From contig NZ_CP036262.1 in NCBI RefSeq assembly GCF_007741495.1, forward strand, positions 5,580,001 to 5,644,000: a DNA stretch of 64,000 bases. Direction: 5' to 3'. Below are positions 2,732-50,340 of this stretch, piece by piece. A program made the position numbers and the translations under genes. This DNA comes from Roseimaritima multifibrata. Its GTDB lineage: Bacteria > Planctomycetota > Planctomycetia > Pirellulales > Pirellulaceae. Within the stretch, counting starts at the first letter, position 1. The number at the start of each line of letters is the position of its first letter. The notes beneath the pieces are model-generated. The model saw only the letters and a list, made by a program, of their open reading frames with translations, was not told the DNA's origin and did not search any database.

Positions 2732-3030
2732 TTCTTAGCGGAACGGCGCGAGCCGTCCGGCCTTTAGCAGAGTGGTTCCAGCGCCCAGAGAGCTTGCACG
2801 CCCAATACCGCAAGCAATCTGCGATTCGCGACCACCTCTTAGCGGAACGGCGCGAGCCGTCCGGCCTTTTGCAGAGTGAGTTCCAGGGCCGGAGAGCTTG
2901 CACGCCCAATACCGCAAGCAATCTGCGATTCGCGACCACTTCTTAGCGGAACGGCGCGAGCCGTCCGGCCTTTTGCGGAGCGAGCTGCCCGGGCCGGAGG
3001 GCTCGCGCCCTTCCGCTAGGAATTTCAGCT
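2732..3030. repeat. GNRA-hairpin repeat array 1 (104-base tandem units)
   Basis: Three copies of the unit TTAGCGGAACGGCGCGAGCC begin near 2735, 2839 and 2943. They sit in a 104-base tandem repeat of two full units and one partial unit whose spacers are nearly identical. A reverse-oriented unit follows near 2991-3028. Each unit folds as a short stem with a GCGA loop. The array lies between the giant surface protein gene and the BBP7 gene. The rest of the 2424-3151 gap holds no supported gene; small frames there run through the repeat on both strands. Confidence 0.9.
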
Positions 3031-3151
3031 CTTAACCATCCGAAACACCTGCGAATTGCTAGGCAGCGGGCGTCACGAGCAAAGCATTTCTCGACCGATG
3101 GAAACCGCCGCGACTTCGTTCGACGTCCGAATTGCAACGGCCACGAAATCC

Positions 3152-4405
3152 TTAAAACCGCAGCTCGGCTCCGATGTTGACACCGTGTGCCAGATAGTCG
3201 GTTTCGTTGAAACGGAACCCGGGACGTAGGGCTCCGACGAACGGAACCGTTTCTTCGGGAAAGAGATTTGGATTGACATCTTGGTCAATCTGTTCGCCCG
3301 CTCGCACCACTGCTGGCAAGTAGATAGCGTTGTAACCGACCGTTGCATGCAGGCAACTTGTCAAACGAAACCCGAACGTGATTCCCAATTCAGGAACCAT
3401 CGTGAATTGTTCTCGTTTGTGAGTACCCATATTGGTGCGCTGGGCATACAGGCCACCGGGATAAGTGTCCGAAACTCCGTTTTCCGTTAGCACGGTGTTA
3501 CCAGAAATACCAACTTCCTGCGTGTTGTTACCGAGCGCAACGCGCATTTTTGTTTCTAACCAAGCGCGTCGAAAATTGGCTTGATAGGTTACCCCTAGCT
3601 GAAGTCCGTTGAATTCGTTGCTCGATGAAAAATTCTCGGCCAGACTGATTTCTCCTCTCGGAGTGACCTGCGATTCCAGCTGCTCCCGAAAGCTCAACGA
3701 GTCATCAAGGCTGATGTGTCGATACCCGACAATCCAATCGATACGATCGGGTGCCACGTCTCCAGCACAAGCGACAACGGCCATCGGGACCATCGAAACA
3801 CGTCCATTGACCAAGTAGGAACTAAAACTTGAATTGGATCCAATCGACAACGAACCATTAACAAGGTTTGGATAGGAAACCAACTGAGCGGTTTCCTGAC
3901 CTTGGGTGATATCGAAGAAGGGCCTACCAATAATCTGTGTCCCATCACTCGATACGGCGTACCCATCGTTCTGGTCGGCGAACATCATGTACTCACCCTC
4001 GATCCCAACCGAACCATCCTGGACCAACCAGAACCCGGCTTGAAAACGAGTGCCACTGACCGCGCCGCCATTGATTTCGGATCCACCAAAGAGCGTCGTC
4101 GTCCCTGGCATCCCGAGGATTGCAGCCTGATCCTGAGGCGTACCGATTGGGCTGGTCGTTACCAGAGGCGGCACGTCCATCCCGTCGGTCCACATATGCA
4201 GATATTCCCAGCGGAACCAAAGTCGGTCATCAACCTTCCAGGACGTCGGCATCAGCCCACCCATTCCGGTTCCCGGGTAATACCCGGCTCCCGAAGTGGC
4301 GTAGGGATCCCCGCCATAGTTGTTATTGACAACTGCCTGAGCCCGCGCAGTGACGCTGCTTAACGCAAATAGCAACAACCATCCTAATAGCCAGCGCGAA
4401 TTCAA
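3152..4405 (-). CDS. BBP7 family outer membrane beta-barrel protein
   Basis: The 417-residue product starts with a typical signal peptide (WLLGWLLLFALSSVTARAQA) and then has the opening WKVDDRLWFRWEYLHMWTDG that I recognise from planctomycete BBP7 beta-barrel proteins. It has alternating amphipathic strands throughout and ends in a terminal phenylalanine (GAELRF), as outer membrane barrels do. The start is a TTG with a good GGGAG site seven bases upstream; no ATG in frame would keep the signal peptide. It should sit in the outer membrane, possibly as a porin-like or structural protein; no substrate is suggested. It is the last gene of a minus-strand group with the ceramidase-like and FG-GAP genes, 24 bases after the former. 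Confidence 0.85.
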   Translation of the reverse strand: MNSRWLLGWLLLFALSSVTARAQAVVNNNYGGDPYATSGAGYYPGTGMGGLMPTSWKVDDRLWFRWEYLHMWTDGMDVPPLVTTSPIGTPQDQAAILGMPGTTTLFGGSEINGGAVSGTRFQAGFWLVQDGSVGIEGEYMMFADQNDGYAVSSDGTQIIGRPFFDITQGQETAQLVSYPNLVNGSLSIGSNSSFSSYLVNGRVSMVPMAVVACAGDVAPDRIDWIVGYRHISLDDSLSFREQLESQVTPRGEISLAENFSSSNEFNGLQLGVTYQANFRRAWLETKMRVALGNNTQEVGISGNTVLTENGVSDTYPGGLYAQRTNMGTHKREQFTMVPELGITFGFRLTSCLHATVGYNAIYLPAVVRAGEQIDQDVNPNLFPEETVPFVGALRPGFRFNETDYLAHGVNIGAELRF

Positions 4406-4429
4406 CTTTCGACTCCCGTCCTGGAAAAT

Positions 4430-5194
4430 TTATCGTGATTTATTCTCAGATTCATTCAAGGAATCTGCATCACCTGCCGGACCATCGGCAATCCAACCAG
4501 TGGGCGTCAAGACGAATTGCTGCTGCAATAAGTCAATTGACAAAAAGAAAACGACTCCATTGATAAGGTGCCAGGCGAAATGGGTCCCGACGGGAAACCA
4601 TTCGCAAATCCAAAGGTCCACCGTGCGCAAAGAGACTGCCAAGGCAAACGCGGTAAAAATCCCAAGCATGCGATAGGGCAGGCGTGTTTGCGTCTGGACC
4701 TGGTAAAGCCCCAGCCCCCCCAAGACGAGCAACGTAGGAAGGTAGTTAAGCGATCCGTTAAACCAAGCTGGTCCGTTCAGATCCCTTGGGAACAGCATTA
4801 CCAACCCATGAGCTGCCAGAAACAGCGTGCAACTGACAGTCCCCCAGCGACGCGAGAGTCTGGGAACGATTCGTAAGTAGAACCAGAGAAACCAAACCTG
4901 GAAAACCAAGATCGGCGCCACATCCAACACCATTGCCCAGCGGGTAGCAAAGGTATGGAACAAGGCGCTGCCGATCGCGACCAGGCCAGCCAAAACGACC
5001 AACCCAGCGACCGGCCAGGGAAGGGCAGGGTGGGCGATTCGCCCACCTGCCAACCCTTTCTGCGTCTGCCTCCTGCCTCGCCACCAAACGGCAACTGCCG
5101 CGATCACAAAGGCAAAATTGCTGAACGCATTAAAAGGTTCAGCCCAAAAACTAGGATCACATCGTTCGCAGTACAGATCGAGTGGTTCGAACAT
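4430..5194 (-). CDS. Ceramidase-like integral membrane hydrolase
   Basis: A 254-residue polytopic membrane protein with about seven hydrophobic segments. It matches the alkaline ceramidase (CREST) family. The N-terminus has LYCERCDPSFWAEPFNAFSN, close to the ExxNxxSN-type start of that family. Later come GSALFHTFATRWAMVLD and GTHFAWHLING, which supply the Ser, His and Asp of a membrane-embedded zinc hydrolase site. Ceramidases cleave the amide bond of ceramides, but bacterial members of this family are mostly uncharacterised, so the substrate here is unknown. It lies 24 bases upstream of the BBP7 gene and 40 bases downstream of the FG-GAP gene, consistent with one transcript. Confidence 0.75.
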   Translation of the reverse strand: MFEPLDLYCERCDPSFWAEPFNAFSNFAFVIAAVAVWWRGRRQTQKGLAGGRIAHPALPWPVAGLVVLAGLVAIGSALFHTFATRWAMVLDVAPILVFQVWFLWFYLRIVPRLSRRWGTVSCTLFLAAHGLVMLFPRDLNGPAWFNGSLNYLPTLLVLGGLGLYQVQTQTRLPYRMLGIFTAFALAVSLRTVDLWICEWFPVGTHFAWHLINGVVFFLSIDLLQQQFVLTPTGWIADGPAGDADSLNESENKSR

Positions 5195-5234
5195 CTAGCC
5201 GCTAACGCGTTGAAAGATCCATCCAAGCAGCCAC

Positions 5235-6488
5235 TTATTTGGCAAGCAACAAGTAGGTCCCGCTTTTGCCGGCGACCGCCAAATCGACCTGTCCGTCTCC
5301 GTTGAAATCACCACTGGCGATTTGCAAACCGGTCCCGACGCGGCCTTCATCAATGGTATACCGCGTAAAGCTATTGCTGTCAGAGGACCATTTGTAGTAG
5401 TAAAGACAAGGTACTTCTTTGCCACCTGGGTCGCCCCCATTGTGAGCAAAGTAGCGTTTGCCAGCGACCAATTCACCCTGACCGTCTCCATCCAAATCAA
5501 TCCACGCAAGCGTATGAGGCTGACTGAATTCGCGATCGATCAAGTGTTTTTCCCACAGCGTCTTTCCTGCGTCATCGGTTCCCTTATTTTCCCACCACTC
5601 CAAACCATAATTGTGCCCATAACCGACAATCATGTCGTTCTTGCCATCCTTGTTTAGATCTTCAATCAAGACAGGCAAACTGGCGTGAATGTCCCAATCG
5701 GGATGAAATTCCCAATTTCCCTCCCAAGGGTTTTCGGCTGGTTGTTCGTACCAACCTTGCCCGACCAAAATGTCTTTGCGTCCATCACCGTTCAAATCCC
5801 CGACCCCAACTCCATGTCCATTCGCTTTGGCCCCTAGTTCCTGACGTTGCAGGCGAAATGCCGCCGCTTGCCCCTCTTTAGGCTCTTCAGGAACGATCCG
5901 CCAAACCAACATAGGGACATCTTTTTTCCAGCTGTTCACGATCCATTCCGGAATCCCATCCCCATCCAAGTCTTCAAATAATTGGCCTTCGTTGGCACTC
6001 GCTCCAGTATCGGTCCACAGATGTTGCGTCCACTGCTTGCCCAATCGCAAACCTTCCTCGCCGGGATTTTCGTACCAGTGAACCTGGGTTGGAATAAATG
6101 AACCGGCGACAACATCCAGTTTCCCATCCTGATTCACATCAAATAGATAATCACCATTGCTTTGCACGTACCCATTCCAGTCCTCAATATTTCGGACCGG
6201 TCGCGGCGTCCAATCGGGAGCCGCATACCAGTATCGGCCCGCCACCAAATCCAATTTTCCATCGCCATTTAGATCTCCCGCAGCAATTCCCTCATTTGCA
6301 TCGACAGCCAAAGGGTGGATAGAAAACGTAACCGGTTCCTCCGCAACGACCGGCGCCGCCAAGAACATCAGCTCACCGACGAATAGAGAAGCAAGTAGTC
6401 CCGACAGCCCCCACAGTCGCACGTTATTACCTGCACGACGCAATAGTGAATCCAGGCGGGACTGGCGAAACAGCGAAAGGTAGGGCAT
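5235..6488 (-). CDS. Secreted FG-GAP/VCBS repeat beta-propeller protein
   Basis: An N-terminal hydrophobic segment (LSGLLASLFVGELMFLAAPVVA) acts as a signal peptide. It is followed by repeated DxNxDGxxD calcium-binding motifs: DLNGDGKLDLV, DVNQDGKLDVV, DLDGDGIPEWI, DLNGDGRKDIL, DLNKDGKNDMI, DLDGDGQGELV and DFNGDGQVDLA. This spacing is that of an integrin-like FG-GAP propeller of about seven blades. I placed the start at the ATG at 6488 because the frame further upstream opens only with TTG. Such proteins are very common in planctomycetes and are exported, but no enzymatic function can be assigned. The calcium loops are the only functional residues visible. Confidence 0.85.
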   Translation of the reverse strand: MPYLSLFRQSRLDSLLRRAGNNVRLWGLSGLLASLFVGELMFLAAPVVAEEPVTFSIHPLAVDANEGIAAGDLNGDGKLDLVAGRYWYAAPDWTPRPVRNIEDWNGYVQSNGDYLFDVNQDGKLDVVAGSFIPTQVHWYENPGEEGLRLGKQWTQHLWTDTGASANEGQLFEDLDGDGIPEWIVNSWKKDVPMLVWRIVPEEPKEGQAAAFRLQRQELGAKANGHGVGVGDLNGDGRKDILVGQGWYEQPAENPWEGNWEFHPDWDIHASLPVLIEDLNKDGKNDMIVGYGHNYGLEWWENKGTDDAGKTLWEKHLIDREFSQPHTLAWIDLDGDGQGELVAGKRYFAHNGGDPGGKEVPCLYYYKWSSDSNSFTRYTIDEGRVGTGLQIASGDFNGDGQVDLAVAGKSGTYLLLAK

Positions 6489-6637
6489 CTGGGAAGGCTC
6501 CAAGTGGCGTACAGCAGGTCTAAAAAGCAATTTTAAATAGTGGGATTACCGCAAACATTAAATCCCCCCACCATCTTACCTAAAACAAATCAACGGTACG
6601 TAACGAACAGCCGATTATTAGTATCACCGTCACTTTC

Positions 6638-6648
6638 GGGGGGGGGGG
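6638..6648. repeat. Homopolymer tract of 11 G
   Basis: Eleven consecutive G lie in the 277-base divergent intergenic region between the FG-GAP gene and the maoC-like gene, 118 bases before the latter's ATG. Tracts of this length are prone to slippage. Whether it lies in a promoter cannot be told from sequence. Confidence 0.8.
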
Positions 6649-6765
6649 ACTGGCAACCGACTTTCACTGCACTAAAACAACCTAAACCCGGTTTGCGAAT
6701 CCCACACCTAGCTTGGAAGCTAAAGATTCGAATACAAACGGAACTAATCTGGAGAGAATGATTCA

Positions 6766-7275
6766 ATGAAACTCCACTTTGAAGAGTTAAAGATCGGCGA
6801 CACGTGGACCAGCGCTCCACGCCGACTGACTCGGGACGATGTCGTCGAATTTGCAGATTTGACAGGCGACCATGACCCGTTACACGGCGGCGAAGACAAT
6901 GACGCGGGCACTCCCTTTGGGCGTCCGATCGTACACGGCTTGCTTGGTTTATCGATCATGGCAGGATTGTCTAGCGATAACCCCGCGGTCAAAACACTCG
7001 CACTTGTCCGCATCGGCGAGTGGAAATTCGAACGCCCCGTCTACTTTGACGATACCGTTCACGTGGTCACCGAAGTCCAAGAGATGCTTCCTTACGGACG
7101 TCGCGCGGGGCGAGTGATCTGGCATCGCCGCCTGGTCAACCAAAACAACCAAACCACGCAAAGTGGGATTTTGGAAACCTTGGTCGCAACGCGGACTCGC
7201 CTTCCACGGATCAACCAACCTCGAGTCGTACACACCACGATCCGAACCCCATCCGGCTCTTCGGTGATGCGTTAA
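6766..7275 (+). CDS. MaoC-like hotdog-fold enoyl hydratase
   Basis: A 169-residue protein of the MaoC dehydratase family, which hydrates 2-enoyl-CoA or dehydrates 3-hydroxyacyl-CoA. The (R)-hydratase motif is present: TGDHDPLHGG (residues about 32-41) supplies the catalytic Asp and His, followed by FGRPIVHGL, the usual hotdog helix. The ATG is preceded by GGAGAG at 6751-6756. The gene stands alone on the plus strand between two minus-strand groups. It faces the OleC-like acyl ligase gene 271 bases downstream, and both would act on acyl chains, but no operon links them. The substrate chain length is not predictable. Confidence 0.85.
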   Translation: MKLHFEELKIGDTWTSAPRRLTRDDVVEFADLTGDHDPLHGGEDNDAGTPFGRPIVHGLLGLSIMAGLSSDNPAVKTLALVRIGEWKFERPVYFDDTVHVVTEVQEMLPYGRRAGRVIWHRRLVNQNNQTTQSGILETLVATRTRLPRINQPRVVHTTIRTPSGSSVMR

Positions 7276-7546
7276 GCCAAGCAGCTTACCTAACCAGCCA
7301 GCGTGCTTGTCACCTTTCGCTCGGGACGTGAAACCAATATGGGTTGGTTTCCGAGTGGAAGTGCAAGCCAGCGACGCGACAAATGCCGTCGTGACAAGAA
7401 TGCAGTAGGAAATACCGTCTGGCTACGACCGTCACCCTCCTGAGCTCGCCAGACCGACAATACATCACCAATAAATTTAACGTCTCACGCGAAAGACGTT
7501 ACAAAACAATTCACCGTCTCGCAGGCCCGGCGAAAAAGCCGAATCT
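7276..7546. other. Convergent intergenic region with a degenerate repeat
   Basis: No gene is visible. A fragment containing CACCTTTCGCTCGGGACGTG (7312-7331) resembles part of the CTTTCGC repeat family near 61.1 kb. The sequence GAGTGGAAGTGCAAGCCAGC just after it resembles one near 16.3 kb upstream of lpxD. These look like decayed copies of an intergenic repeat. Confidence 0.5.
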
Positions 7547-14654: not shown

Positions 14655-14878
14655 CCCTTCTTAGCGGAACGGCGCAAGCCGTCCGGCCACCAGCATTCGC
14701 AACCGACGGACAACCTTCTTAGCGGAACGGCGCGAGCCGACCGGCCACCAGCATTCGCAACCGACGGACAACACTTCCTAGCGGAACGGCGCGAGCCGTC
14801 CGGCCACCAGCATTCGCAACCGACAGACAACACTTCCTAGCCGATCGGCGCGAGTCGACCGGCCACCAGCATTCGCGG
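14655..14878. repeat. GNRA-hairpin repeat array 2 (58-59 base tandem units)
   Basis: Four units with starts near 14660, 14718, 14777 and 14836 are spaced 58, 59 and 59 bases apart and share the spacer CACCAGCATTCGCAACCGAC. The first has loop GCAA and the others GCGA. In the fourth copy the outer stem pair is T-A where the others have A-T, a compensated change. The array fills most of the 14534-14968 gap between the phosphatase gene and rpsG. Confidence 0.9.
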
Positions 14879-18616: not shown

Positions 18617-19564
18617 ATGCTGCAAATCCTCGAATTTTTTGCGGGAATCGGCGGGGTTGCCGAAGCGATCCGCCAACAACCTCAGCTTGGCAGAATCAGC
18701 CAAGCTGTCGACATCGACGGGCAAGCCGGAGCGGTCTACGCCCATAACTTCGGACAGACGCCGCGAGTTGCCGCCATTGAATCCGCGAAGAGCTGGGAAT
18801 CAAAAATTGCCTGGCGAGAGGCAGACACATGGTGGCTATCCCCCCCATGCCAGCCCTACTGCCGGCGCGGAAACCAATCCGAAAACGACCCTCGCCGTGC
18901 CGCGTTCCAACAGGTTATGCTGTCTTTAAAACAGGCCGCAGACGGACGCCCCAGACAGATTGCGATGGAAAACGTTCCGGAATTTCGTGGCACACCGGAC
19001 CACCAAGCATGGCTAGAACTCCTGCGTGAACTTCATTACGAGGTCTGCGAATCGGTCCTCTGCCCAACGGCTTGGGGATTTCCCAACCGCCGCCAACGGT
19101 ACTACCTAACGGCCATTCATTCCCCGGCAAATAGCCTCGCCCGCCCCCCCGCTGCGATCCCTCCACCGATCCCTATCACACTGCCGCCGGCGAAGCATCG
19201 ACCACTGGATGGATTCCTTGAAAAAGACCCACCACTGGAGTGCTGGGTGGACGAAGGGGAACTGGATGCAAAGCGTCCGGGACTAAACATCGTCGACGGG
19301 GAAAATCGTGATACCGCATGCACCGCCTGTTTTACGAGCGGGTATGGAAAATCGATCCTGCAGGCGGGTTCCTACCTTCAAGTCGATTCAAGGCTGCGGC
19401 GATTCAGCCCTCTCGAAATCGCTCGACTGCTAGGGTTTTCCGACGAATTCAATTGGCCGGAAATGCCCGAACCGATTCGAATGCGGCGGAAGTGGAAACT
19501 GTTGGGCAACAGCCTATCGATCCCGGTCGTTCGAGCGGTCCTGAGCTCGCTGGTTCGCGATTGA
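18617..19564 (+). CDS. Dnmt2-like cytosine-5 methyltransferase
   Basis: A 315-residue SAM-dependent cytosine-5 methyltransferase with all core motifs: LEFFAGIGG (I), SPPCQPYCRRG with catalytic Cys78 (IV), MENVPEF (VI), GFPNRRQRYY (VIII) and LLGNSLSIPVV (X). The region between VIII and X is short. It contains TACTACFTSGYG (residues 234-244) and RRFSPLEIARLLGF, matching the CFT-x-x-YG signature of Dnmt2/TRDMT1, which methylates C38 of tRNA rather than DNA. No DNA target-recognition domain or restriction gene is present. The gene follows lpxI by two bases. A tRNA target is inferred from family resemblance; a solitary DNA methyltransferase is the alternative. Confidence 0.8.
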   Translation: MLQILEFFAGIGGVAEAIRQQPQLGRISQAVDIDGQAGAVYAHNFGQTPRVAAIESAKSWESKIAWREADTWWLSPPCQPYCRRGNQSENDPRRAAFQQVMLSLKQAADGRPRQIAMENVPEFRGTPDHQAWLELLRELHYEVCESVLCPTAWGFPNRRQRYYLTAIHSPANSLARPPAAIPPPIPITLPPAKHRPLDGFLEKDPPLECWVDEGELDAKRPGLNIVDGENRDTACTACFTSGYGKSILQAGSYLQVDSRLRRFSPLEIARLLGFSDEFNWPEMPEPIRMRRKWKLLGNSLSIPVVRAVLSSLVRD

Positions 19565-19567
19565 AAA

Positions 19568-19930
19568 CCCTAGCGGAAAGCCGCGAGCCCTCCGGCACCG
19601 CAACAAACACTCGCGACGGGCCGGACGGCTTGCGCCGTGCCGCTAAGAAATTGGAATCCCTAGCGGAAAGCCGCGAGCCCTCCGGTACCGCAACAAACAC
19701 TCGCGAAGGGCCGGACGGCTTGCGCCGTGCCGCTAAGAAATCGGGATCCCTAGCGGAAAGCCGCGAGCCCTCCGGCACCACAACAAACACTCGCGAAGGG
19801 CCGGACGGCTTGCGCCGTGCCGCTAAGAAATTGGAATCCCTAGCGGAAAGCCGCGAGCCCTCCGGCACCGCAACAAACACTCGCGAAGGGCCGGACCGCT
19901 TGCGCCGTGCCGCTAAGAAATCGGGACGGC
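19568..19930. repeat. GNRA-hairpin repeat array 3 (four 90-base tandem units)
   Basis: Four tandem 90-base units begin at 19568, 19658, 19748 and 19838. Each has a forward unit (CTAGCGGAAAGCCGCGAGCC) and, after about 25 bases, a reverse-oriented unit (GGACGGCTTGCGCCGTGCCG). The forward stem is degenerate in this array while the reverse one pairs well. Because 90 is a multiple of three, spurious long open frames run through on both strands. The array lies between the convergent ends of the methyltransferase and kinase genes. Confidence 0.92.
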
Positions 19931-19949: not shown

Positions 19950-21146
19950 TTAACCGCGACGAATTGGCGACCCTTTAAAATTCACCTGAAAGCGGAAGAC
20001 CGTCTTTTCGTGCCGGTGAATTTCGCCGGTCTGCAAATCGACTCGATCCGGAATTTCTTGGATATGCTTGTCGACCACGGCGTGGTAGCCGCGTTCAGAA
20101 AAGATATCGATCAACATGGACAGCGCGAGCGGGTCATGGAAAAGCTGATCTTCCGAATTCACTTGAGCTCGGCCGGAAAGGGCATGACGCTGGATGATCG
20201 GCATGAATTTTTCGTCGATCACCTGAACCGTACGGACGAACTTTTCAGTGTGCTCCAGTTCATAAGTATCCAGCCGCTTCACCAACAACTGGCGAGCGTG
20301 AACGACGATTTCTTCCGCTAGAGGAAGCGGCCGCAAGCGATCGTACGTCCGAGGATCCAGCTCTAACGAACTTTGATACTGCAATTCCGCAAGGATGTTC
20401 TCTTCAACCTCTTCGATCGGCCCTTCCGCATTGATGAAGTGGTAATGGTAGATTTCCTTCAAAGACTTCAAAGCGTCCCAGGTCTGCTCCTTAAAAACCC
20501 GGTATCGGCGACGAGCGGTCGCTTCACTGAGGTCCGTACTCCGCAGCGCCCACTTCTTGCCAACGCCCGTTTCTTCGACCTCCTTGTTGTGAGCGGCCAC
20601 CTTTTCACCACGTTCGATTTGCCGGGCGATACTTGTTTTTTCGCTGACAAACAAAACCATGGCGTGGATCGTTGGGCGACGAAAATTAATCGCCAACGGG
20701 GTATCCGCAAATTCGGTGTACAGCTGATTCAAGCGATCGACCAACAACTTCAGGCATTCCACCTGAACGCGGGTCCGCGGAAACCCGTCCAGCACGGCAC
20801 CATCGCGGAATTCCTCATCCAACAGGCGGCGCAGCAAGATCGCTACGACTTCCTTATCGCCGACCATCCCACCTGAATCTTTAATCGCCATAGCTTCACG
20901 GGTAACCAGCAGATCACTGATCACGATTGGCGGACAGGTCAGCCCGCGCGCTTGCATGACAAACCGGGTATGCGTGCCTTTACCAGCACCGGGTGCCCCC
21001 CCCAGCAGAATCAATTCTTTCGGAAACCTTAAGAATTCGTGACCGATTTCTTCTTCCAGCTGCTCCCAAACCGTTTTAAAAATCAGTTGGGCGTCTTTGA
21101 TTTCCAGGTCAGCAACTTCGGCGGGGGGAACAGGATTGGGAGACAT
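19950..21146 (-). CDS. Adenylate-kinase-like nucleotide kinase with extra C-terminal domain
   Basis: A 398-residue protein. Residues about 44-260 are a nucleoside-monophosphate kinase: P-loop GGAPGAGKGTHT, the NMP-binding region, and LDGFPRTRVQ before a lid-like segment rich in charged residues. Adenylate kinases are usually about 215 residues. Here there is an N-terminal helix (residues 12-40) and about 130 further residues at the C-terminus (from RPLPLAEEIVVHARQLLV to the end) that I do not recognise. The start at 21146 is the second in-frame ATG; the first, at 21191, would add 15 residues. The substrate is probably AMP or a related nucleotide, but the added domain implies a specialised role. 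Confidence 0.75.
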   Translation of the reverse strand: MSPNPVPPAEVADLEIKDAQLIFKTVWEQLEEEIGHEFLRFPKELILLGGAPGAGKGTHTRFVMQARGLTCPPIVISDLLVTREAMAIKDSGGMVGDKEVVAILLRRLLDEEFRDGAVLDGFPRTRVQVECLKLLVDRLNQLYTEFADTPLAINFRRPTIHAMVLFVSEKTSIARQIERGEKVAAHNKEVEETGVGKKWALRSTDLSEATARRRYRVFKEQTWDALKSLKEIYHYHFINAEGPIEEVEENILAELQYQSSLELDPRTYDRLRPLPLAEEIVVHARQLLVKRLDTYELEHTEKFVRTVQVIDEKFMPIIQRHALSGRAQVNSEDQLFHDPLALSMLIDIFSERGYHAVVDKHIQEIPDRVDLQTGEIHRHEKTVFRFQVNFKGSPIRRG

Positions 21147-21376
21147 GAACAGTAACAGACCTTTGAGTAGCGGAAATCGACGCCGTTGCATCTCGATTCC
21201 GGGATTAATTCATTTCCTATAGCGTATCCGCCAACGGCACCTCTCATCCAGGGCCAAAGGGAGCCCGGGGGACCACAAATTGCAGATGTTTTTTTCTTAA
21301 ATGTCCTTCCCGCGGCGAACGGTTGATTTATGTTGACGCAGAAACGCTTCAATCCTCATCAAATGGGCAGCAGACC

Positions 21377-43480: not shown

Positions 43481-44482
43481 TTATGCTTGTTTTTGTGGAG
43501 TCGCAAGCGATGCGAGAACCCGCCGTTTTCCGGTGAATGAGCGGCGTCCATGCATCACAATTCGGTTATCGACGAAAGCCAAATCTCCCGCCTGCCAAGG
43601 AACGTCAAAGGTTAAAGCTTCCGCCATTTGAGCCACTTCGATGACCGTGTCACGCGGAAGCGGAGTTCCATCTCCAAAGGTGATCGCTTTGGAGGGGTCG
43701 TTCCGATCGTCTTTCCAGCCCTGGAAGGCAGCGATCAATTGATTGAAAAACGATTTCCTTCCCGGTTCGATTTCATAGACGGCCGGCAAGGTTCGGCTGG
43801 TTGCACGCAAGCAGCCGTCGGCTTGCCAAACCCATGTGTATCCCAGCTCTCGCATCCGCTGCTCGGCTTCGTCACGATCGTTGGCGCGGAACGTACTTTG
43901 CCAATTGCGGCCCATCCCTGATGTCGGATCGGATTCGGAAGGCATCACCGTGCTGTACTGCAATCCTTTCGCTTCACAGTCCGCCGCGAACGTTGGAAAG
44001 CGTTCCGCGATTTGCTCAAACAACACATCCGATCGGCAGAGCGGCGTCGCACCTCCGGCTTCGGCAGGCTGTTGGCAGAAGAAGAACAACTGTGCGGGGA
44101 AGACCGGAGTCTGTGCCATTTCGTGGTGCAGGAAAATGGTCACATCCGAGGGCGCCTCGTTGGCAGAGAATATCCGTGGCGTGTAATTAATCCGGACGGC
44201 ATTGGAGAGCGATTGCTCGTAGGGAAAATTCTCCAGATCAAATGCCGCGACGAACGCATCCACATCTTCAGGGACCGATAGTGGAAAGCCGCGAAACAGA
44301 ATGGCTCCGTGTCGCTGCAGCTGCTGCATCAAATCCGCACGCTGCGATTTCGCCCACTCGATCGCGCCCGGAAGATCCGGTTTCGGACCATCGCATCCCA
44401 GCACCAACGGGAAGTCAGCGTCACCATATTTCTGCTGCCCGGCAACAAGCATGGGAGCGACAGACAAAGATTCGGAAGTCAT
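43481..44482 (-). CDS. TauD/TfdA-type Fe(II)/2-oxoglutarate dioxygenase
   Basis: A 333-residue member of the TauD family, which hydroxylates small molecules using oxygen and 2-oxoglutarate. The iron ligands are the H-x-E of LHHEMAQ and the distal His in VDNRIVMHGRRSF. The 2-oxoglutarate-binding Arg is expected shortly after (HGRRSFTGKRR). The start at 44482 (MTSESLS) was taken because the longer frame begins in non-coding sequence. The substrate is unknown; it is not preceded by sulfonate or taurine transport genes. Related genes include clavaminate synthase-like enzymes. Confidence 0.85.
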   Translation of the reverse strand: MTSESLSVAPMLVAGQQKYGDADFPLVLGCDGPKPDLPGAIEWAKSQRADLMQQLQRHGAILFRGFPLSVPEDVDAFVAAFDLENFPYEQSLSNAVRINYTPRIFSANEAPSDVTIFLHHEMAQTPVFPAQLFFFCQQPAEAGGATPLCRSDVLFEQIAERFPTFAADCEAKGLQYSTVMPSESDPTSGMGRNWQSTFRANDRDEAEQRMRELGYTWVWQADGCLRATSRTLPAVYEIEPGRKSFFNQLIAAFQGWKDDRNDPSKAITFGDGTPLPRDTVIEVAQMAEALTFDVPWQAGDLAFVDNRIVMHGRRSFTGKRRVLASLATPQKQA

Positions 44483-44699
44483 TACGTCCAACGAAAATTT
44501 AAGGAAGCCAACGAAGAGAGTCCACTCGACAGAGCTAAGGTAACAAATTCCAAGTGGCCAATTGGCGGCTCCCTTTATTTTCGAATGGAGTCCTCCCTTA
44601 GAGCCTGCCAAACGGAGCACTTCCGGCCGACAGCGTGTGGTGTTAGCACGATCCGCACCTAGGGGAAGATCGCGCGACGCCGGCCCGGTAACTCACTCT

Positions 44700-45008
44700 G
44701 CAAAAGGGCCGGACGGCTTGCGCCGTGCCGCTAAGAACTAAAATCCTTAGCGGAAGGGCGCGAGCTCTCCGGCCCCGCAATCCACTCCGCAAAAGGGCCG
44801 GACGGCTTGCGCCGTGCCGCTAAGAACTAAAATTCTTAGCGGAAGGGCGCGAGCCCTCCGGCCCCGCAATCCACTCCGCAAAAAGGCCGGACGGCTTGCG
44901 CCGTGCCGCTAAGAACTAAAATTCTTAGCGGAAGGACGCGAGCTCTCCGGCCCCGTAATCCACTCCGCAAAAGGGCCGGACGGCTTGCGCCGTGCCGCTA
45001 AGAAGGGG
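44700..45008. repeat. GNRA-hairpin repeat array 4 (89-base units)
   Basis: Forward units TTAGCGGAAGGGCGCGAG near 44747, 44836 and 44925 repeat every 89 bases. Each is followed by a reverse-oriented unit (GGACGGCTTGCGCCGTGCCG), and a reverse unit also opens the array. Spacers (CCGCAATCCACTCCGCAAAA) are nearly identical between copies. Some stems have G-T wobbles (GGGC with GCTC). The rest of the 44483-45431 gap holds only the tRNA-Glu gene and its terminator. Confidence 0.92.
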
Positions 45009-45020
45009 CTTCCGGCAACG

Positions 45021-45068
45021 AAAAAAGGCGATCTCGACATGTGAAATCCATCATGCGAAATCGCCTTT
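45021..45068 (-). terminator. Terminator of the tRNA-Glu gene
   Basis: AAAGGCGAT and ATCGCCTTT flank a roughly 28-base loop. On the minus strand the stem ends in a six-T run, starting four bases after the tRNA 3' end. Confidence 0.85.
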
Positions 45069-45070
45069 AG

Positions 45071-45143
45071 CGCCCCCTAGTGGAGTTGAACCACTGTTTC
45101 CGGATTGAGGACCCGGCGTCCTGGGCCACTAGACGAAGGGGGC
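45071..45143 (-). tRNA. tRNA-Glu (anticodon CTC)
   Basis: A 73-base cloverleaf: acceptor GCCCCCT/AGGGGGC, D arm GTCTAGTGGCCCAGGAC exactly as in bacterial tRNA-Glu, anticodon arm CCGGG-TCCTCAA-TCCGG, T arm AGTGG-TTCAACT-CCACT, discriminator G. The CCA end is not encoded. Positions 34-36 read CTC (Glu). Position 33, almost always T, is C here, and the 31-39 pair is a G-T wobble. Position 38 is A. Confidence 0.92.
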
Positions 45144-45431
45144 AAACGCTATTTTAGGTCCCCCAACGAATTTCTACCATCCGTGGAATGAGCCTGAACC
45201 GACGCCGAGGCAAATTCGATTCGACAATCTCGATGCGGATCGAAATCCAGGCCCCCCCCACAGTTGCTATCCCCCCTCTTTACCAGCTCCCGTGGCGTCT
45301 GGTTTTCTGATTGGACTTGCCATGCCCAAGTGGGATTCGGTAGTTTCCCAAACGTTCCACCTACGTCCTTCCTGAATGTTTCATTCCGCGGGAGGTTGGA
45401 CGCCCCACCTTCACCGGAGCATTTTTTTCGT

Positions 45432-46343
45432 ATGAGACCCTGTTTTACCAATCTGCTAAGAGGCCGTCTGGTGTTGCAGGTCGGTGCATGCGCACTGGGC
45501 GTCATGCTGCTGAGCGGATGCGGAATTACGAAAATGCAGGATGCGACCGACCAACTTGTCCTTAGCGACGCAGTCGATCACAGCATCGCAGCCATCGATT
45601 TCCGGCCGCTGACCGGCCACAAAGTCTATCTGGACACCACCTACATTAAAGCGGTTAAAAGTGTCGGATTTGTCAATTCCGATTACATCATCAGCTCGCT
45701 TCGGCAACAGGTCGTCGCCGCCGGATGCCATCTGCAAGACAGCCTGACCGACGCCGACCTGGTGATCGAAGTTCGCTGTGGGACGCTTGGTGCCGACGGA
45801 CATAGCACGACTTACGGGATCCCCGCCAACAACGCCGTTTCCGCAGCCGCACAGGCACTGCCTCAAGCCCCTTCGGTTCCCACCCTGCCTGAAATCTCGT
45901 TTGCTCGCCGCGAGAGCAACGAAGGGGCCGCCAAGATTGCGGCCTTTGCCTATGACCGCGAAACCAGAGCTCCGGTATGGCAATCGGGAACATCCCAAGC
46001 GATGACGTCTGCCAAAGACACCTGGGTGCTTGGCATCGGGCCCTTCCAAGGCGGCACCGTTCGCGATTCAACTCGCCTGGCCGGCGCCGACATCGGATTT
46101 GGCGACGAAGAGACTCAAACTTCGCCCGTGCTGCCGCTTGATCGGCCTCCGGTCGATTTCACCGCCCAAGTCTACTTCGACGAAGGCTGGCCCTTAATGC
46201 GAAAGAACCGAACCTCTCAAATGCTGGTCGGGCCGGTCGAAAAATCGGACATCAGCGAGAAACCGGAAGAGGGGGAAGTCGCCCAGGCTGGATTCGAAGA
46301 GGACAAGAAAGCCCCCCCCAAAGAGAAAAAGAAGGGTCCCTAG
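45432..46343 (+). CDS. Lipoprotein, function unknown
   Basis: A 303-residue protein with a lipoprotein signal peptide: the lipobox LLSGC puts the lipid on Cys30. The body has a DUF-like domain with DFRPLTGHKVYLDTTYIK and DYIISSLRQQVVAAGCHLQD, reminiscent of planctomycete lipoproteins of unknown function that resemble an LptE/YbbC-type alpha-beta unit. The C-terminal 40 residues are Lys/Glu/Pro-rich and likely disordered. The ATG at 45432 is the only start that keeps the signal peptide. It is transcribed divergently from the tRNA gene and convergently with pyruvate carboxylase. Confidence 0.75.
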   Translation: MRPCFTNLLRGRLVLQVGACALGVMLLSGCGITKMQDATDQLVLSDAVDHSIAAIDFRPLTGHKVYLDTTYIKAVKSVGFVNSDYIISSLRQQVVAAGCHLQDSLTDADLVIEVRCGTLGADGHSTTYGIPANNAVSAAAQALPQAPSVPTLPEISFARRESNEGAAKIAAFAYDRETRAPVWQSGTSQAMTSAKDTWVLGIGPFQGGTVRDSTRLAGADIGFGDEETQTSPVLPLDRPPVDFTAQVYFDEGWPLMRKNRTSQMLVGPVEKSDISEKPEEGEVAQAGFEEDKKAPPKEKKKGP

Positions 46344-46345
46344 TG

Positions 46346-46373
46346 AGCCGCAAGCGATCCGCTTGCGGGCTCT
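46346..46373. terminator. Hairpin between convergent genes
   Basis: GAGCCGCAAGCG pairs with CGCTTGCGGGCTC across a short loop, giving a stem of about 12 bases with one bulge. It lies between the convergent lipoprotein and pyruvate carboxylase genes. There is no T run, so any terminator function would be weak. Confidence 0.55.
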
Positions 46374-46415
46374 TGAATAACCACATCTTCTCAAACTTGA
46401 TCGAAACCGCAGGCT

Positions 46416-49400
46416 TTAGGATTCAAGCGTGACCAGCAGGTCACCCGCTTCGACTTGGCTGCCTCGGTCCATGTTGATCGTGGCCACTTTGCCGTCGCAG
46501 GGAGCATTGATGGTGGTTTCCATTTTCATCGCTTCCAAAACCATTAGCTTCTGGCCTGCTTTGACTCGATCGCCGACATCGACGGCGACGTTGATTACCA
46601 TTCCCGGCATCGAAGCACCGACCTGACCATCGACATTCGGATCGGCTTTGACCGCCGCCTTTTTCTCTGGTTCCAGGGCTCGGTCTTCAATCGTGACTTC
46701 GCGTGGCTGTCCATTCAATTCGAAGAAGACGGTCCGTGTCCCATCGGGATGCGGTTGCCCGGTGGCGAGGTACCTGACAATCAACGTCTTGCCACGTTCG
46801 ATCTCGACAGCGATCTCTTCCCCCGGTTCTTGTCCATAAAAGAAGTTGGGCGTTGGCAGGACATCCACATCGCCGTACGTCTGCATATGCTGGGCATAAT
46901 CTGCAAAGACTTTTTCGTACAACAACGACGACGCGGCGTCGCGGCGAGTCGCCGTTCCGCCCAGCTGTTCGCCAGCCTTTTGGAGAGCTGCATCGACGTC
47001 TGCGGGAGGCATCAGCGCCCCTGGACGTTCGGTCAAAGCCGGTTCGCCTTGTAGAATCGCTTCCATGATGGCGGGTGGGAATCCGCCAACGGGTTGTCCC
47101 ATTCGCCCGGCGACCAAATCGATCACCGACGCGGGGAAGGCAATCGGTTTCTTTTGCTGCAAGACGTCTTCGGCGGTCAGTTCATTCTGAACCATAAAGA
47201 GTGCCATATCGCCAACGGCCTTACTGGTAGGCGTCACTTTGACAATATCGCCTAACATCGCATTGACCGTCGCGTAGGTTTTACAAACCTCCGCCCAACG
47301 ATCCGAAAGCCCTAAGGCTCGGGCCTGCTGGAAGAGATTGGTATACTGCCCACCCGGCATTTCGTGTTCGTACAAATCGCCGGTCGCCGGCAGCACTTGG
47401 CTTTCGAACGGGAGGTAGAATTCGCGAGCGGCTTGCCAGTAAGTCGCCAAGTTCGTCAAGACTTCCGTCTGCAGGGCACTTTCGTGCGAGGAATTCCGCA
47501 GTGCTTCGACCAGGGTATTCAGATTGACCTGAGACGTACCACCGGAAAGTGGCGCAAGTGCCGCATCCGCAATCTGCAGCCCCTCATCCGCAGCCGCCAA
47601 AATCGAGGCCGCTTGCGTGCCCCCCGTATCATGAGTGTGGAAGTGGATCGGGATCCCAACTTCCTCTCGCAAGGCTTTCACCAGCATGCGAGCGGCCGCA
47701 GGCTTGCACAATCCAGCCATGTCCTTGATGGCCAGCAGATGCGCTCCCATGCTCTCCAGTTCCTTCGCCAAACCGACGTAATACTTCAGGTCGTATTTCG
47801 TTCGCTTCGGATTCTGCAGGTCTCCTGAGTAACAGATCGACGCTTCGCAGATCTTGCCTGAATTCAAGACCGCGTCCATCGCGACCTTCATGTTGGGAAC
47901 CCAGTTCAAAGCATCAAAGACGCGGAACACGTCCATTCCCGCGTCGGCTGCTTCTTCGACGAACAACTGAACCACGTTGTCGGGGTAGTTGGTGTACCCG
48001 ACCGCGTTACTTGCTCGCAGCAACATTTGAAACAGGATGTTGGGGACCTCTTCGCGGAGGTCGGCCAAACGCTGCCAAGGACTTTCTTTCAGGAACCGCA
48101 TGCTGGTATCAAACGTGGCCCCTCCCCACATTTCCAGCGAGAACAACTGAGGCGCCAAGCGGGCGTATGCCGGCGCGATCTGCAGCATGTCGTAGGTTCG
48201 CACGCGCGTTGCCAACAAAGACTGATGGGCATCCCGCATCGTCGTGTCGGTGAACAACAACCCTGACTGCTGATCGATCCATTTCCGCAGCCCAGGGATC
48301 CCCTCTTTCAGGAACGCGGTTCGGCTGCCATCGGGGATCGCTCCTTTGGCTTCTGGAACCGGAGCTGGTTGTCGGCGAGTCGCCACGGGACGTCCGACGA
48401 CAAGCGGATTGCCATTAACAATCTGCTCGGCCAGAAACGTCAGCAGCTTCGTCGCACGATCGCGGCGTTTGGGCAGTTGCACCAATTCCGGAGTCTGGTC
48501 GATCAACCGCGTGGTCGCTTCACCAGCCAGGAAGATTTCATTGTTCACCAACCGCATCAAAAACGGAATGTTCGTTTTGACTCCGCGAATCCGAAACTCT
48601 TGAAGGACGCGGTCCATTCGCCGCGAGGCTTCTTTCAACGTCCGTCCACGAGCGGTCACTTTGACCAGCATCGAATCGTAAAACGGATTGACGACGGCTC
48701 CGGAGAAGGCACTTCCGGCATCCAAACGAATCCCTAAGCCAGCGGCTGAACGGTAGTGACTGATCCGTCCGTAATCGGGCCGAAATTCATTTTCGGGATC
48801 TTCGGTGGTGACCCGGCACTGCATCGCAAAGCCATTGGTGCGAAGTTCGGACTGGGGCGGCAACCCCAATTCTTCATCGTCCAGCTTATACCCCTGAGCG
48901 ACCAAGATCTGCGACCGCACCAAGTCGATCCCGGTCACTTCTTCGGTGACGGTGTGTTCGACCTGGATCCGTGGATTGACTTCGATGAAGTAGAATTGTT
49001 GTTGGTCGACGTCGTACAGGAATTCAACTGTACCAGCGTTTTCATAGCCGACTTGGCGGCCAATTTTCAGGGCGGCTTCACACAGTTCTTCACGAATGCT
49101 GGGGGCTAGGTTCGGAGCCGGCGCCAGTTCCACAACTTTTTGGTGACGACGCTGAACGCTGCAATCACGTTCGTACAGATGGAGCAAGTTATTGTGACGA
49201 TCGCCCAGCAGCTGGACCTCCAAGTGACGAGCTCGCTGAACAAAACGTTCGACAAAAACCTCGTCGCTACCAAACGCGGTCTTCGCTTCGCGTTGGGCTT
49301 GCTCAAATTGGCTGGCGACCTCGTCCGCTTTGTGTACGACTCGCATCCCACGACCGCCCCCCCCTTTGGCGGCTTTCAGAATAACAGGGAATCCCATTTC

Positions 49401-49862
49401 CTCGGCGATCGACACCGCTTCTTCAGCTGATTTAAGAGCAACGTTCGTCCCCCCCAGGACGGCTACTCCCGCTTCGGTTGCGACCTGCCGGGCCGACATT
49501 TTGTCCCCCAGAACCCGCAGCGATCGCACGCTTGGTCCGACAAACAGGATTCCAGCTTCTTCCAAGGCCTCGGCAAATTCCGGATTTTCCGACAAAAATC
49601 CGTAACCGGGATGAACGGCGTCGATTTCGTGCTCCAGGCACAGCCGCACGATTTCGGGAATATTCAGATAGGATCGAATGGGTTCCCCAGCGACACCGAT
49701 CTGATACGCCTGGTCGGCCTTGAAGCGGTGCAGGGCGTAACGATCTTCATGGGAATAGATCGCAACGGTGCGAATACCGAGTTCGGTGGCACTGCGAAAG
49801 ACGCGAGTCGCAATTTCACTGCGGTTTGCGACTAAAAGACGCTTGATCGGGCGAACGCTCAT
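46416..49862 (-). CDS. pyc: Pyruvate carboxylase
   Basis: A full-length 1148-residue biotin enzyme that carboxylates pyruvate to oxaloacetate, the main anaplerotic step. The biotin carboxylase domain (residues 1-450) has KAAKGGGGRGMR and the catalytic EVNPRIQVEHTVTEEVTG. The carboxyltransferase domain begins at about residue 530 with DTTMRDAHQSLLATR and has the metal-binding HFHTHDTGG. The biotin carrier domain at the C-terminus has LEAMKMETTINAP with biotinylated Lys1113. I used the ATG at 49862; the codon at 49898 is TTG. It is the alpha-4 single-chain form. Confidence 0.96.
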   Translation of the reverse strand: MSVRPIKRLLVANRSEIATRVFRSATELGIRTVAIYSHEDRYALHRFKADQAYQIGVAGEPIRSYLNIPEIVRLCLEHEIDAVHPGYGFLSENPEFAEALEEAGILFVGPSVRSLRVLGDKMSARQVATEAGVAVLGGTNVALKSAEEAVSIAEEMGFPVILKAAKGGGGRGMRVVHKADEVASQFEQAQREAKTAFGSDEVFVERFVQRARHLEVQLLGDRHNNLLHLYERDCSVQRRHQKVVELAPAPNLAPSIREELCEAALKIGRQVGYENAGTVEFLYDVDQQQFYFIEVNPRIQVEHTVTEEVTGIDLVRSQILVAQGYKLDDEELGLPPQSELRTNGFAMQCRVTTEDPENEFRPDYGRISHYRSAAGLGIRLDAGSAFSGAVVNPFYDSMLVKVTARGRTLKEASRRMDRVLQEFRIRGVKTNIPFLMRLVNNEIFLAGEATTRLIDQTPELVQLPKRRDRATKLLTFLAEQIVNGNPLVVGRPVATRRQPAPVPEAKGAIPDGSRTAFLKEGIPGLRKWIDQQSGLLFTDTTMRDAHQSLLATRVRTYDMLQIAPAYARLAPQLFSLEMWGGATFDTSMRFLKESPWQRLADLREEVPNILFQMLLRASNAVGYTNYPDNVVQLFVEEAADAGMDVFRVFDALNWVPNMKVAMDAVLNSGKICEASICYSGDLQNPKRTKYDLKYYVGLAKELESMGAHLLAIKDMAGLCKPAAARMLVKALREEVGIPIHFHTHDTGGTQAASILAAADEGLQIADAALAPLSGGTSQVNLNTLVEALRNSSHESALQTEVLTNLATYWQAAREFYLPFESQVLPATGDLYEHEMPGGQYTNLFQQARALGLSDRWAEVCKTYATVNAMLGDIVKVTPTSKAVGDMALFMVQNELTAEDVLQQKKPIAFPASVIDLVAGRMGQPVGGFPPAIMEAILQGEPALTERPGALMPPADVDAALQKAGEQLGGTATRRDAASSLLYEKVFADYAQHMQTYGDVDVLPTPNFFYGQEPGEEIAVEIERGKTLIVRYLATGQPHPDGTRTVFFELNGQPREVTIEDRALEPEKKAAVKADPNVDGQVGASMPGMVINVAVDVGDRVKAGQKLMVLEAMKMETTINAPCDGKVATINMDRGSQVEAGDLLVTLES

Positions 49863-50049
49863 GGAAGTGTCGAAGGGGGTAGGTGGCAAGTTAGTCAATC
49901 GAGGAAGGAGGAATTTAACCTACTAACTACCTACAATGCCAGAAGGCCGCCCCTAAGTTATGAGCGAAAGCGACCCCGGCGCTACCCCAAACCGCAAAAC
50001 TGCCACGGTCGACGCGGGTGGTGGTCCGTAGGAGAGGGAATCAGAACCC

Positions 50050-50340
50050 AAATTCCTAGCGGAACGGGGAGAGCCCTTCGGCCCAAAAACCACTCCGCAA
50101 AACGGCCGGACGGCTTGCGCCGTACCGCTAAGAAAGGATCGCGAACCACAAATTCTTAGCGGAAGGGCGCGAGCCCTCCGGCCCCGCAACCACTCAGCAA
50201 GAAAGGCCGGACGGCTTGCGCCGTACCGCTAAGAAAGGATCCCGAATCACAAATTCTTAGCGGAAGGGCGCGAGCCCTCCGGCCCGAAAACCACTCCGCA
50301 AGAAAGGCCGGACGGCTTGCGCCGTGCCGCTATGAAAGGA
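50050..50340. repeat. GNRA-hairpin repeat array 5 (100-101 base units)
   Basis: Forward units start near 50055, 50156 and 50257, each followed by a reverse-oriented unit (GGACGGCTTGCGCCGTACCG or GTGCCG). The bulged base in the reverse unit is T in two copies where other arrays have C or A. The first forward unit has a different loop (GGAGAGCCC), so it is degenerate. The array fills most of 49863-50352 between pyruvate carboxylase and the flagellar operon; no gene is visible there. Confidence 0.9.

What the first reader, a model, noticed from the sequence alone, without database searches (positions are those of the whole stretch)
2732..50340. Dispersed intergenic repeat that folds as a GNRA tetraloop hairpin with covarying stem
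Five arrays (2732-3030, 14655-14878, 19568-19930, 44700-45008, 50050-50340) share a unit of the form TTAGCGG-x-A[CG]GGC-GNRA-GCC[CG]T-CCGGCC. The stem changes in compensating pairs: ACGGC with GCCGT, AGGGC with GCCCT, and TCGGC with GTCGA in one copy. The bulged base x is A, C or T without disturbing the stem. The loop is GCGA or GCAA, both GNRA, but only when read in the TTAGCGG orientation; the other strand gives TCGC or TTGC. That asymmetry points to selection on an RNA (or single-stranded) fold with a fixed sense strand.
Basis: partly seen in the sequence, partly recalled or inferred. Interest (0 to 1): 0.8.

Follow-up and report, generated by a model that had tools for sequence, protein, structure and literature searches.

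The report
Planctomycete hairpin repeats with matching transposase
The repeats are a large family of short DNA hairpins scattered through a planctomycete genome, most likely copied as single-stranded DNA by a small transposase whose gene sits elsewhere in the same genome inside an array of the same hairpins, so they look like mobile DNA rather than an RNA gene or switch.

Summary
The five arrays hold 29 copies of a 24-28 nt hairpin (17 on +, 12 on -). All 29 have a GNRA loop when read from the TTAG end; 19 stems are fully Watson-Crick (20 with G.T). The genome holds 745 copies, against 0 for a reversed control. Two stem pairs covary strongly.

The RNA reading is not supported. Copies lie equally on both strands (371/374), often as inverted pairs near gene 3' ends. 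DNA energies favour the TTAG strand in 3 of 3 variants; RNA energies in none. A sister family has mainly GCTA loops, which are not GNRA.

The decisive result is a gene. Clustering open frames around the repeats pointed to a divergent HuH/Y1 protein, like the 'class 3' proteins described in 2018. In this genome it sits among 32 copies of the repeat. Of 13 close homologues (59% identity or more), 12 carry the repeat on both sides; of 17 distant ones examined none does within one mismatch, and 6 carry the sister repeat.

So these are REP/REPIN elements of a class-3-like REPtron: a new variant of a known kind. Several repeat-rich genomes lack the gene, which is unexplained.

The parts
2731..3024 (.). 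Array 1: REP copies at 2737-2760 (+), 2841-2864 (+), 2945-2968 (+), 2994-3017 (-); 104-bp tandem unit ending in an inverted pair
14657..14870 (+). Array 2: REP copies at 14663-14686, 14721-14744, 14780-14803, 14839-14862, all +; 58-59-bp tandem unit; two of the four stems carry a mismatch
19566..19920 (.). Array 3: four inverted (+,-) REP pairs, 90-bp unit, between convergent genes 18617-19564 (+) and 19950-21191 (-); the four + halves and the last - half have stem mismatches. No REP (<=2 mismatches) lies in the fetched 3' flank of the orthologue of gene 19950-21191 in 3 of 3 congeneric genomes (about 1.5, 1.5 and 0.78 kb of flank)
44703..45005 (.). Array 4: seven REP copies alternating -,+,-,+,-,+,-; 89-bp unit; one + copy (44927) with a stem mismatch
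50052..50337 (.). Array 5: six REP copies as three inverted (+,-) pairs; 100-101-bp unit; first copy decayed

Best explanation
The repeat is a REP element (repetitive extragenic palindrome), often used as inverted pairs with the feet outside (REPIN/BIME style), and belongs to a REPtron whose transposase is a 168-aa class-3-like HuH/Y1 protein at G000:C1:6384302-6384805 (minus strand, outside the window). Proposed mechanism: when the DNA is single-stranded (replication fork, repair) the TTAG strand folds into foot + 8-bp stem with one bulged base + stable DNA tetraloop; the protein recognises foot, bulge and loop, cleaves next to the foot with its tyrosine, and moves or re-joins the element; unequal exchange then multiplies the unit with its local flank into tandem arrays. 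SHOWN: the repeat family, polarity, covariation, dimers, 3'-end location, gene linkage, conserved HUH, Y and Q residues. INFERRED: binding, cleavage, strand choice, the part played by the loop, and that the protein makes new copies.
For: (a) Linkage: 32 REP copies (<=2 mm) within 1.5 kb of the gene in this genome; 12 of 13 close homologues (59-100% identity; 7 genera) with the same REP on both sides; 0 of 17 distant homologues examined (41-53%) with it at <=1 mm; 6 of these 17 with a sister REP instead. (b) Co-occurrence: 13 of 13 genomes with a close homologue hold the REP, against 62 of 199 overall, Fisher p = 1e-7, not corrected for kinship. (c) Protein: NHxH, Y154 and Q159 invariant in 17 of 17; matches to Y1_Tnp (E 0.0019 to 4.8e-6 in 5 of 5), IS200 (5 of 5) and REP_Tyr_transpos (3 of 5) models, mostly below cut-offs; hhalign to seven other Y1 proteins of this genome 88.7%, E 2.6e-6. 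(d) Dimers: of 127 neighbouring pairs under 300 nt apart in the genome sample 47 are +-, 32 -+, 25 ++, 23 --; 44 of the 47 +- pairs are 20-29 nt apart. (e) 41 of 42 arrays between genes; their edges face 56 stops and 23 starts against 724:800. (f) DNA folds favour the TTAG strand. (g) Patchy distribution within genera and absence at an orthologous place in 3 congeners.
Against: G178 (565 copies), G149 (490), G038 (89) and G095 (74) hold the REP but show no class-3 match even with a profile; G178 is a single contig. In the G178 sample 18 of 34 copies at <=2 mm are perfect at the fixed letters and 13 have two mismatches (3 such expected from a Markov copy), so many are not visibly decayed. G184 and G190 (923 and 662 copies) have only a distant homologue (47% and 46%) without this REP beside it. 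One close homologue (G161, L334) has no REP within 1.5 kb. Genomes with only a distant homologue hold the REP in 26 of 65 cases, genomes with none in 23 of 121. Pfam's cut-off is passed by 2 of 5 class-3-like proteins scanned, NCBIfam's by none. No structure was predicted and nothing biochemical is known. The foot is not the GTAG of classical REPs nor the CnGA reported for class 3.
Confidence: 0.77

Rival explanations
1. RNA element: the hairpin acts in transcripts (terminator, mRNA 3'-end stabiliser or protein-binding GNRA hairpin), and the loop polarity marks the transcribed strand.
For: GNRA is a classic RNA tetraloop; loops are GNRA in 95% of 365 copies; arrays lie beside gene 3' ends and between convergent genes; the 5 single-copy arrays in co-directional gaps are 4 sense, 1 antisense.
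Against: Balanced strands, 371/374; 24 sense against 37 antisense copies in co-directional gaps; inverted neighbours put both strands into one transcript; RNA energies give the other strand equal or better stability in 3 of 3 variants; no Rfam match in the window beyond a tRNA; sister family with mostly GCTA loops.
Confidence: 0.1
2. The REP is spread by another enzyme acting in trans (another Y1 protein or another ssDNA enzyme), and the class-3-like gene is only one of several users or a passenger.
For: Four REP-rich genomes show no class-3 gene; 19 of 20 REP-bearing relatives have Y1_Tnp matches (some of the weak ones are the class-3-like genes themselves).
Against: In 38 Y1_Tnp loci, 40 wider stretches (overlapping sets) and 26 loci of a second RAYT group none has this REP next to the gene; the nearest perfect pair is 2.1 kb off, in G184. 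This is a part of the Y1 genes listed. Five of 7 Y1 stretches of this genome carry hairpin or GTAG repeats of their own. The close class-3-like clade carries the REP in 12 of 13.
Confidence: 0.17
3. No transposition now: the arrays are only tandem duplication and gene conversion of an ancient repeat.
For: Arrays repeat locus-specific flanks together with the REP, as slippage or unequal exchange would.
Against: 42 separate arrays in 23% of the genome, the five of the window with different spacers; absence at the orthologous place in 3 of 3 congeners; copy number 0 to 923 within one genus, g36.
Confidence: 0.06

Closest known systems
REP / BIME / REPIN elements with RAYT (TnpA-REP) transposases of Proteobacteria (PMC2817692 and PMC8266576, passages read; PMC3116915, listing and start of abstract only)
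   Same: Short intergenic hairpin with a 5' foot, hundreds of copies, inverted dimers of two sub-types, repeats flanking a HuH/Y1 gene, REP sequence changing with the protein clade
   Different: Foot TTAG/CTAG here instead of GTAG or GTGG; nearly strict 4-nt GCRA loop; the protein is class-3-like, below the Pfam Y1_Tnp cut-off in this genome
Class 3 HuH-Y proteins and their flanking structures (PMC6006769, class 3 section and passages read)
   Same: HuH, W-T/A and Y-4-Q signature, long conserved N-terminus, Planctomycetes, gene flanked by several hairpins, about 600 copies reported in Solibacter usitatus
   Different: Published foot CnGA is not what is seen here; the published Y motif ends EQ, here mostly AQ; no REP family of Pirellulaceae is named in the passages read
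GTAG-tagged REPs reported from Rhodopirellula baltica (PMC3733652, first part of Results and passages read)
   Same: Same family of bacteria; G129, whose length (7,145,576) equals that of R. baltica SH1 as I recall it, carries this REP, some copies with a GTAG foot, and the close class-3-like gene
   Different: The published consensus is in a figure that could not be read, so identity cannot be settled
IS200/IS605 insertion sequences
   Same: Single-strand HuH transposase acting on hairpins with a bulged or looped base
   Different: No unit with paired left and right ends was defined here; arrays of repeats flank the gene instead

Membership tests
REP element (general kind) | 20-40 nt palindrome in high copy, mostly between genes | tested here: met
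   745 copies; 41 of 42 arrays intergenic by a simple gene caller
REP element (general kind) | Polarity: one strand with foot, stem irregularity and loop | tested here: met
   Foot (T/C)TAG, one bulged base, GCRA loop on one strand only
REP element (general kind) | Inverted dimers or BIME-like mosaics of two sub-types | tested here: met
   43 distinct dimers in the sample of this genome, 35 with a different base 7 in the two halves; in the G178 sample only 1 of 6
REP element (general kind) | Associated HuH/Y1 gene flanked by the same repeat | tested here: met
   12 of 13 close homologues, this genome included; not in every REP-rich genome
REP element (general kind) | Processed as single-stranded DNA by the associated protein | not testable with these tools
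   needs biochemistry
GTAG REP superfamily (PMC3733652) | GTAG tag in >90% of members of most families | tested here: not met
   The three bases ending in the A of AGCGG, in 365 copies: TTA 215, CTA 52, GTA 36, others 62; works like it, not filed under it
Class 3 HuH-Y proteins (PMC6006769) | HuH, tryptophan motif W[TA], Y followed by Q five residues on | tested here: met
   N86 H87 H89, W133, Y154, Q159 invariant in 17; T134 in 90% or more
Class 3 HuH-Y proteins (PMC6006769) | Extended conserved N-terminal region, profile about 155 aa | tested here: met
   TWTxYGTWLPGDxRGW block nearly invariant
Class 3 HuH-Y proteins (PMC6006769) | Exact Y motif YV[VI][AENY]EQ and class-3 HMM | tested here: inconclusive
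   Here Yx(3)AQ in most of 17; the HMM was not available
Class 3 HuH-Y proteins (PMC6006769) | Flanking structures with foot CnGA | tested here: not met
   Feet mainly TTAG/CTAG/GTAG and, in the sister family, TGAG or TCAG; hence 'class-3-like'
RNA family of Rfam | Match at gathering score | tested here: not met
   Only a tRNA in the window

The most novel reading that the evidence does not exclude
Pirellulaceae carry a separate lineage of single-strand transposase/REP systems in which a class-3-like HuH protein reads a d(cGNNAg) DNA tetraloop more than a GTAG foot, and in which REP populations of hundreds of copies persist or spread in genomes that have lost the gene, either by help from another enzyme or because the hairpins have been taken over by the host.
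Probability: 0.3. Interest if true: 0.62.

Novelty: new variant of a known kind. Interest (0 to 1): 0.45.

Why it matters
It replaces an RNA-structure puzzle with a testable transposase-substrate pair. It gives class 3, which PMC6006769 left as 'possibly evolutionary intermediates' between its classes 1 and 2, a concrete repeat family with a sharp protein-repeat match (close clade against sister clade). In this genome the partner gene falls below the Pfam cut-off, so a standard screen passes over it; that may hold for other 'orphan' REP families. The REP-rich genomes without the gene are natural material for asking whether REP populations outlive their transposase.

Tried and rejected
Y1_Tnp (PF01797) genes as partner: 8 in this genome and those of 20 relatives. 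Flanks of 8 loci, then of 30 loci and 40 wider stretches, were scanned; none has the REP next to the Y1 gene, apart from chance-level hits and one pair 2.1 kb away. These were the stronger Y1 matches for the most part. I overlooked at that stage that the weak matches already included class-3-like genes (for instance in G028, G173 and G182, coordinates as); one of them (G190, L129) was scanned and has no such REP. A RAYT fragment near a contig end, 188 nt (from its midpoint) from a single REP in one MAG (L043), was judged a chance neighbour. A second RAYT group (231-aa query): 26 loci, only 3-mismatch hits. Of the neighbour families the HuH-like one ranked third by number of genomes and was picked by eye; larger families seen there (protein kinases, sulfatases and others) were not pursued; the 262 control slices came from two genomes only. 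Replication-strand bias: counts, not tested formally. R-scape is not available; covariation was tested by column shuffles and slid partners, which do not fully correct for kinship. PDB: no hit with one sequence; with the profile two transposases (2f4f, 2ec2) at E 0.04-0.05 and an antibody chain at 0.87, not significant. PADLOC: none. Papers: six 12-mers of the core occur in 5 papers, none on planctomycetes by title; 'Rhodopirellula baltica' with 'repetitive extragenic palindromic' none; brought up the papers on REPs cited. Figures and supplements were not readable, so a drawing of this repeat in print is not excluded.
Full report
WHAT IS THERE. The window is positions 5580001-5644000 of a 7,216,590-bp single-contig genome. 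That it is a planctomycete is inferred: of 11 named records with the exact repeat, 10 have a title that names a planctomycete and one says only 'bacterium'. The five arrays hold 29 copies of AGCGG-x-A[C/G]-GGC-GCRA-GCC-[G/C]T-CCGG and close variants. Read from that end the sequence folds as foot, 3-bp outer stem, one bulged base, 5-bp inner stem and a 4-nt loop. All 29 loops are GNRA; 19 stems are fully Watson-Crick, one more is complete with a G.T, and 9 hold a mismatch. Four further window hits at 3 mismatches are at background level: in 1.664 Mb of this genome a first-order Markov copy gives 80 hits at exactly 3 mismatches, 11 at 2 and 1 at 1, against 120, 26 and 32 observed and 138 perfect ones. 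Genome-wide, 371 + 374 copies lie on the two strands at up to 2 mismatches.

COVARIATION. Letters at pairs 6-19 and 7-18 were left free in the search, so those two pairs are a fair test. In 365 40-mers, distinct within each genome (of 427 from 48 genome labels; the 62 with 2 mismatches were left out), they are Watson-Crick in 97.8% and 93.4%, against 70.8% and 53.5% for independent columns. In 102 distinct 24-mers the helix has 58 cells changed on both sides, against 15.1 +/- 3.0 in shuffles (0 of 500 reach it) and 1 to 6 when partners are slid. Two measures do not stand out: pairs with a double change (2, shuffles 2.2) and further pair types (12, reached by 35 of 500), because only two pairs vary much. 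Related sequences inflate these counts. Part of the variation within this genome is two sub-types that pair with each other: 21 of 43 distinct dimers join an AC/GT half with a GCAA loop to an AG/CT half with a GCGA loop.

ARRANGEMENT. In the sample (window plus 80 stretches of 20 kb, 23% of the genome) 170 copies at <=1 mismatch form 42 arrays, 14 of them single copies; 41 are between called genes (own simple gene caller). Of 36 intergenic arrays with both neighbours called, 17 lie between convergent, 16 between co-directional and 3 between divergent genes, against 138, 518 and 172 gaps of 40 bp or more (convergent p = 1.2e-5). Array edges face 56 stops and 23 starts, against 724:800 for edges of gaps of 60 bp or more (p = 3.7e-5). 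Of 127 neighbouring pairs under 300 nt apart 79 are of opposite orientation; 44 of 47 +- pairs are 20-29 nt apart, feet outside, as in REPINs. At the 3' end of the gene next to array 3, none of three congeneric genomes has a REP in the fetched flank (about 1.5, 1.5 and 0.78 kb).

SINGLE-STRANDED DNA, NOT RNA. Strand balance and inverted neighbours argue against one transcribed strand; the 4:1 sense excess among five single copies in co-directional gaps is too small to weigh. With DNA energies the TTAG strand is the more stable in 3 of 3 variants (-8.6, -8.6, -8.1 against -7.8, -7.8, -7.3 kcal/mol). With RNA energies it is less or equally stable (-13.7, -13.7, -14.5 against -15.1, -13.7, -15.9). 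Loops: 95% of the 365 copies are GNRA. Two other hairpin families next to Y1 genes of this genome have loops GCRA, GTAA or GTCA closed by C-G, and the sister REP family has mostly GCTA, with some GGTG. The usual form is thus cGNNAg, one of four stable DNA tetraloop motifs in the title of Nakano et al. 2002, which I saw only in a reference list (PMC9969394). A GNRA rule would not cover GTCA or GCTA. Against a general rule: a third such hairpin is closed by T-A (L136), and the two GTAG-type repeats of this genome have other loops. That the loop is selected as DNA is my inference.

THE TRANSPOSASE. The stronger Pfam Y1_Tnp genes gave no link. I then took 139 REP neighbourhoods and clustered all open frames; a family of four loci in four genomes, third in the ranking by genomes, was a HuH-like protein. 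In this genome its gene (168 aa, L220:14299-14805, minus strand; G000:C1:6384302-6384805 without stop) lies between two REP arrays, 32 copies in all within 1.5 kb. Its Y1_Tnp match is E 0.0019, below the cut-off, so one search did not list it; in relatives one search did list some genes of this kind among its weak matches, which I noticed only on checking. In 199 genomes of the family, 78 have a homologue at E <= 1e-5; 13 have a close one at 59-100% identity and the rest fall to 53% or less. Thirty loci were cut out: 13 close, 17 distant. Of the 13, 12 have the REP at <=2 mismatches on both sides; L334 (G161) has none. Of the 17, 0 have it at <=1 mismatch and 6 have the sister form TGAGCGG-xx-CGGC-GCTA-GCCG-CCGG or close to it. 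All 13 close genomes hold the REP somewhere, against 62 of 199 overall (p = 1e-7); of 65 genomes with only a distant homologue 26 hold it, of 121 with none 23. The 13 come from 7 genera, so independent events are fewer than genomes. Seventeen aligned proteins share NHxH, W133, Y154 and Q159 without exception.

WHAT DOES NOT FIT. In a profile search of 14 REP-bearing genomes, 4 (G178, G149, G038, G095) have no class-3 match, and G106 has only weak ones, one of them (C323:12066) inside a gene of the other RAYT group found. G178 alone holds 565 copies; in its sample 18 of 34 are perfect and 13 have two mismatches. Either the gene was lost, or another enzyme serves. The distant homologues in G184 and G190 have no such REP beside them.

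WHAT IS KNOWN. [quoted passage not shown] PMC8266576 (passages): TnpA-REP proteins cut single-stranded REP in a strand-specific manner and use foot, bulge or loop to different degrees. PMC6006769 (class 3 section and passages): class 3 is rare, mainly from Planctomycetes, Acidobacteria and Proteobacteria, flanked by atypical structures with foot CnGA, about 600 copies in Solibacter, possibly intermediate between classes 1 and 2. PMC3733652 (first part of Results and passages): GTAG REPs occur in the PVC superphylum, several REP families in R. baltica, and CGTC REPs lack a dedicated transposase. PMC3116915 (REPINs): search listing and start of abstract only. The repeat described here works like a REP and meets its general features. 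It is not filed under the GTAG superfamily (foot not met), and the protein is called class-3-like because the published foot is not met and the exact Y motif only in part. Its range: 62 of 199 family genomes; outside the family 2 single one-mismatch hits in 290 genomes (294 searched, 4 of them of the family), with one hit for the reversed control.

VERDICT. Real, non-random and explained with fair confidence as a REP/REPIN population of a class-3-like REPtron. The bold parts still open are DNA-loop recognition and REP populations without their gene.

Noticed in passing
L134:3722-4899 (G000:C1:2098721-2099898) beside Y1 gene 2098197-2098535: Eight hairpins CCTGGGAC-GCRA-GTCCCAGG (both orientations) with a further repeat (TCGCGAAGCGA) between them, next to an IS200-like Y1 gene: another hairpin family with a GNRA loop.
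   Followed up: partly
L135:2586-3678 (G000:C1:7106585-7107677) around Y1 gene 7107148-7107489: Arrays holding CCGTTGGC-GTAA-GCCAACGG and CCGGCGGC-GTCA-GCCGCCGG on both sides of a Y1 gene.
   Followed up: partly
L139:3015-4630 (G000:C1:6488514-6490129): Two tandem, nearly identical 182-aa RAYT genes flanked by GTAGGCCGGATCAAGGAGCG... repeats that resemble the enterobacterial REPs tabulated in PMC2817692.
   Followed up: partly
L140:2520-3450 (G000:C1:4494019-4494949): A 231-aa RAYT flanked by GTAGCGGTGGCATCCTGCCGCCG, a GTAG-tagged repeat whose first bases (TAGCGG) resemble the family studied here; a 57% identical protein in G095 has a similar flank (L281).
   Followed up: partly
L350, L355, L358, L359, L360, L361: Sister REP family (TGAGCGG..CGGC-GCTA-GCCG-CCGG) beside distant class-3-like genes: the repeat changes with the protein clade.
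   Followed up: partly
G000 sample: Further hairpin families in this genome: GAGTCTC, CCGCCTC and CTTTCGC stems with a GGA or TCC loop.
   Followed up: no
G178, G149, G184, G190: Hundreds of REP copies (490-923) without a close class-3-like gene.
   Followed up: partly
window 45070-45143: tRNA-Glu (ctc) gene lies just beyond array 4.
   Followed up: no
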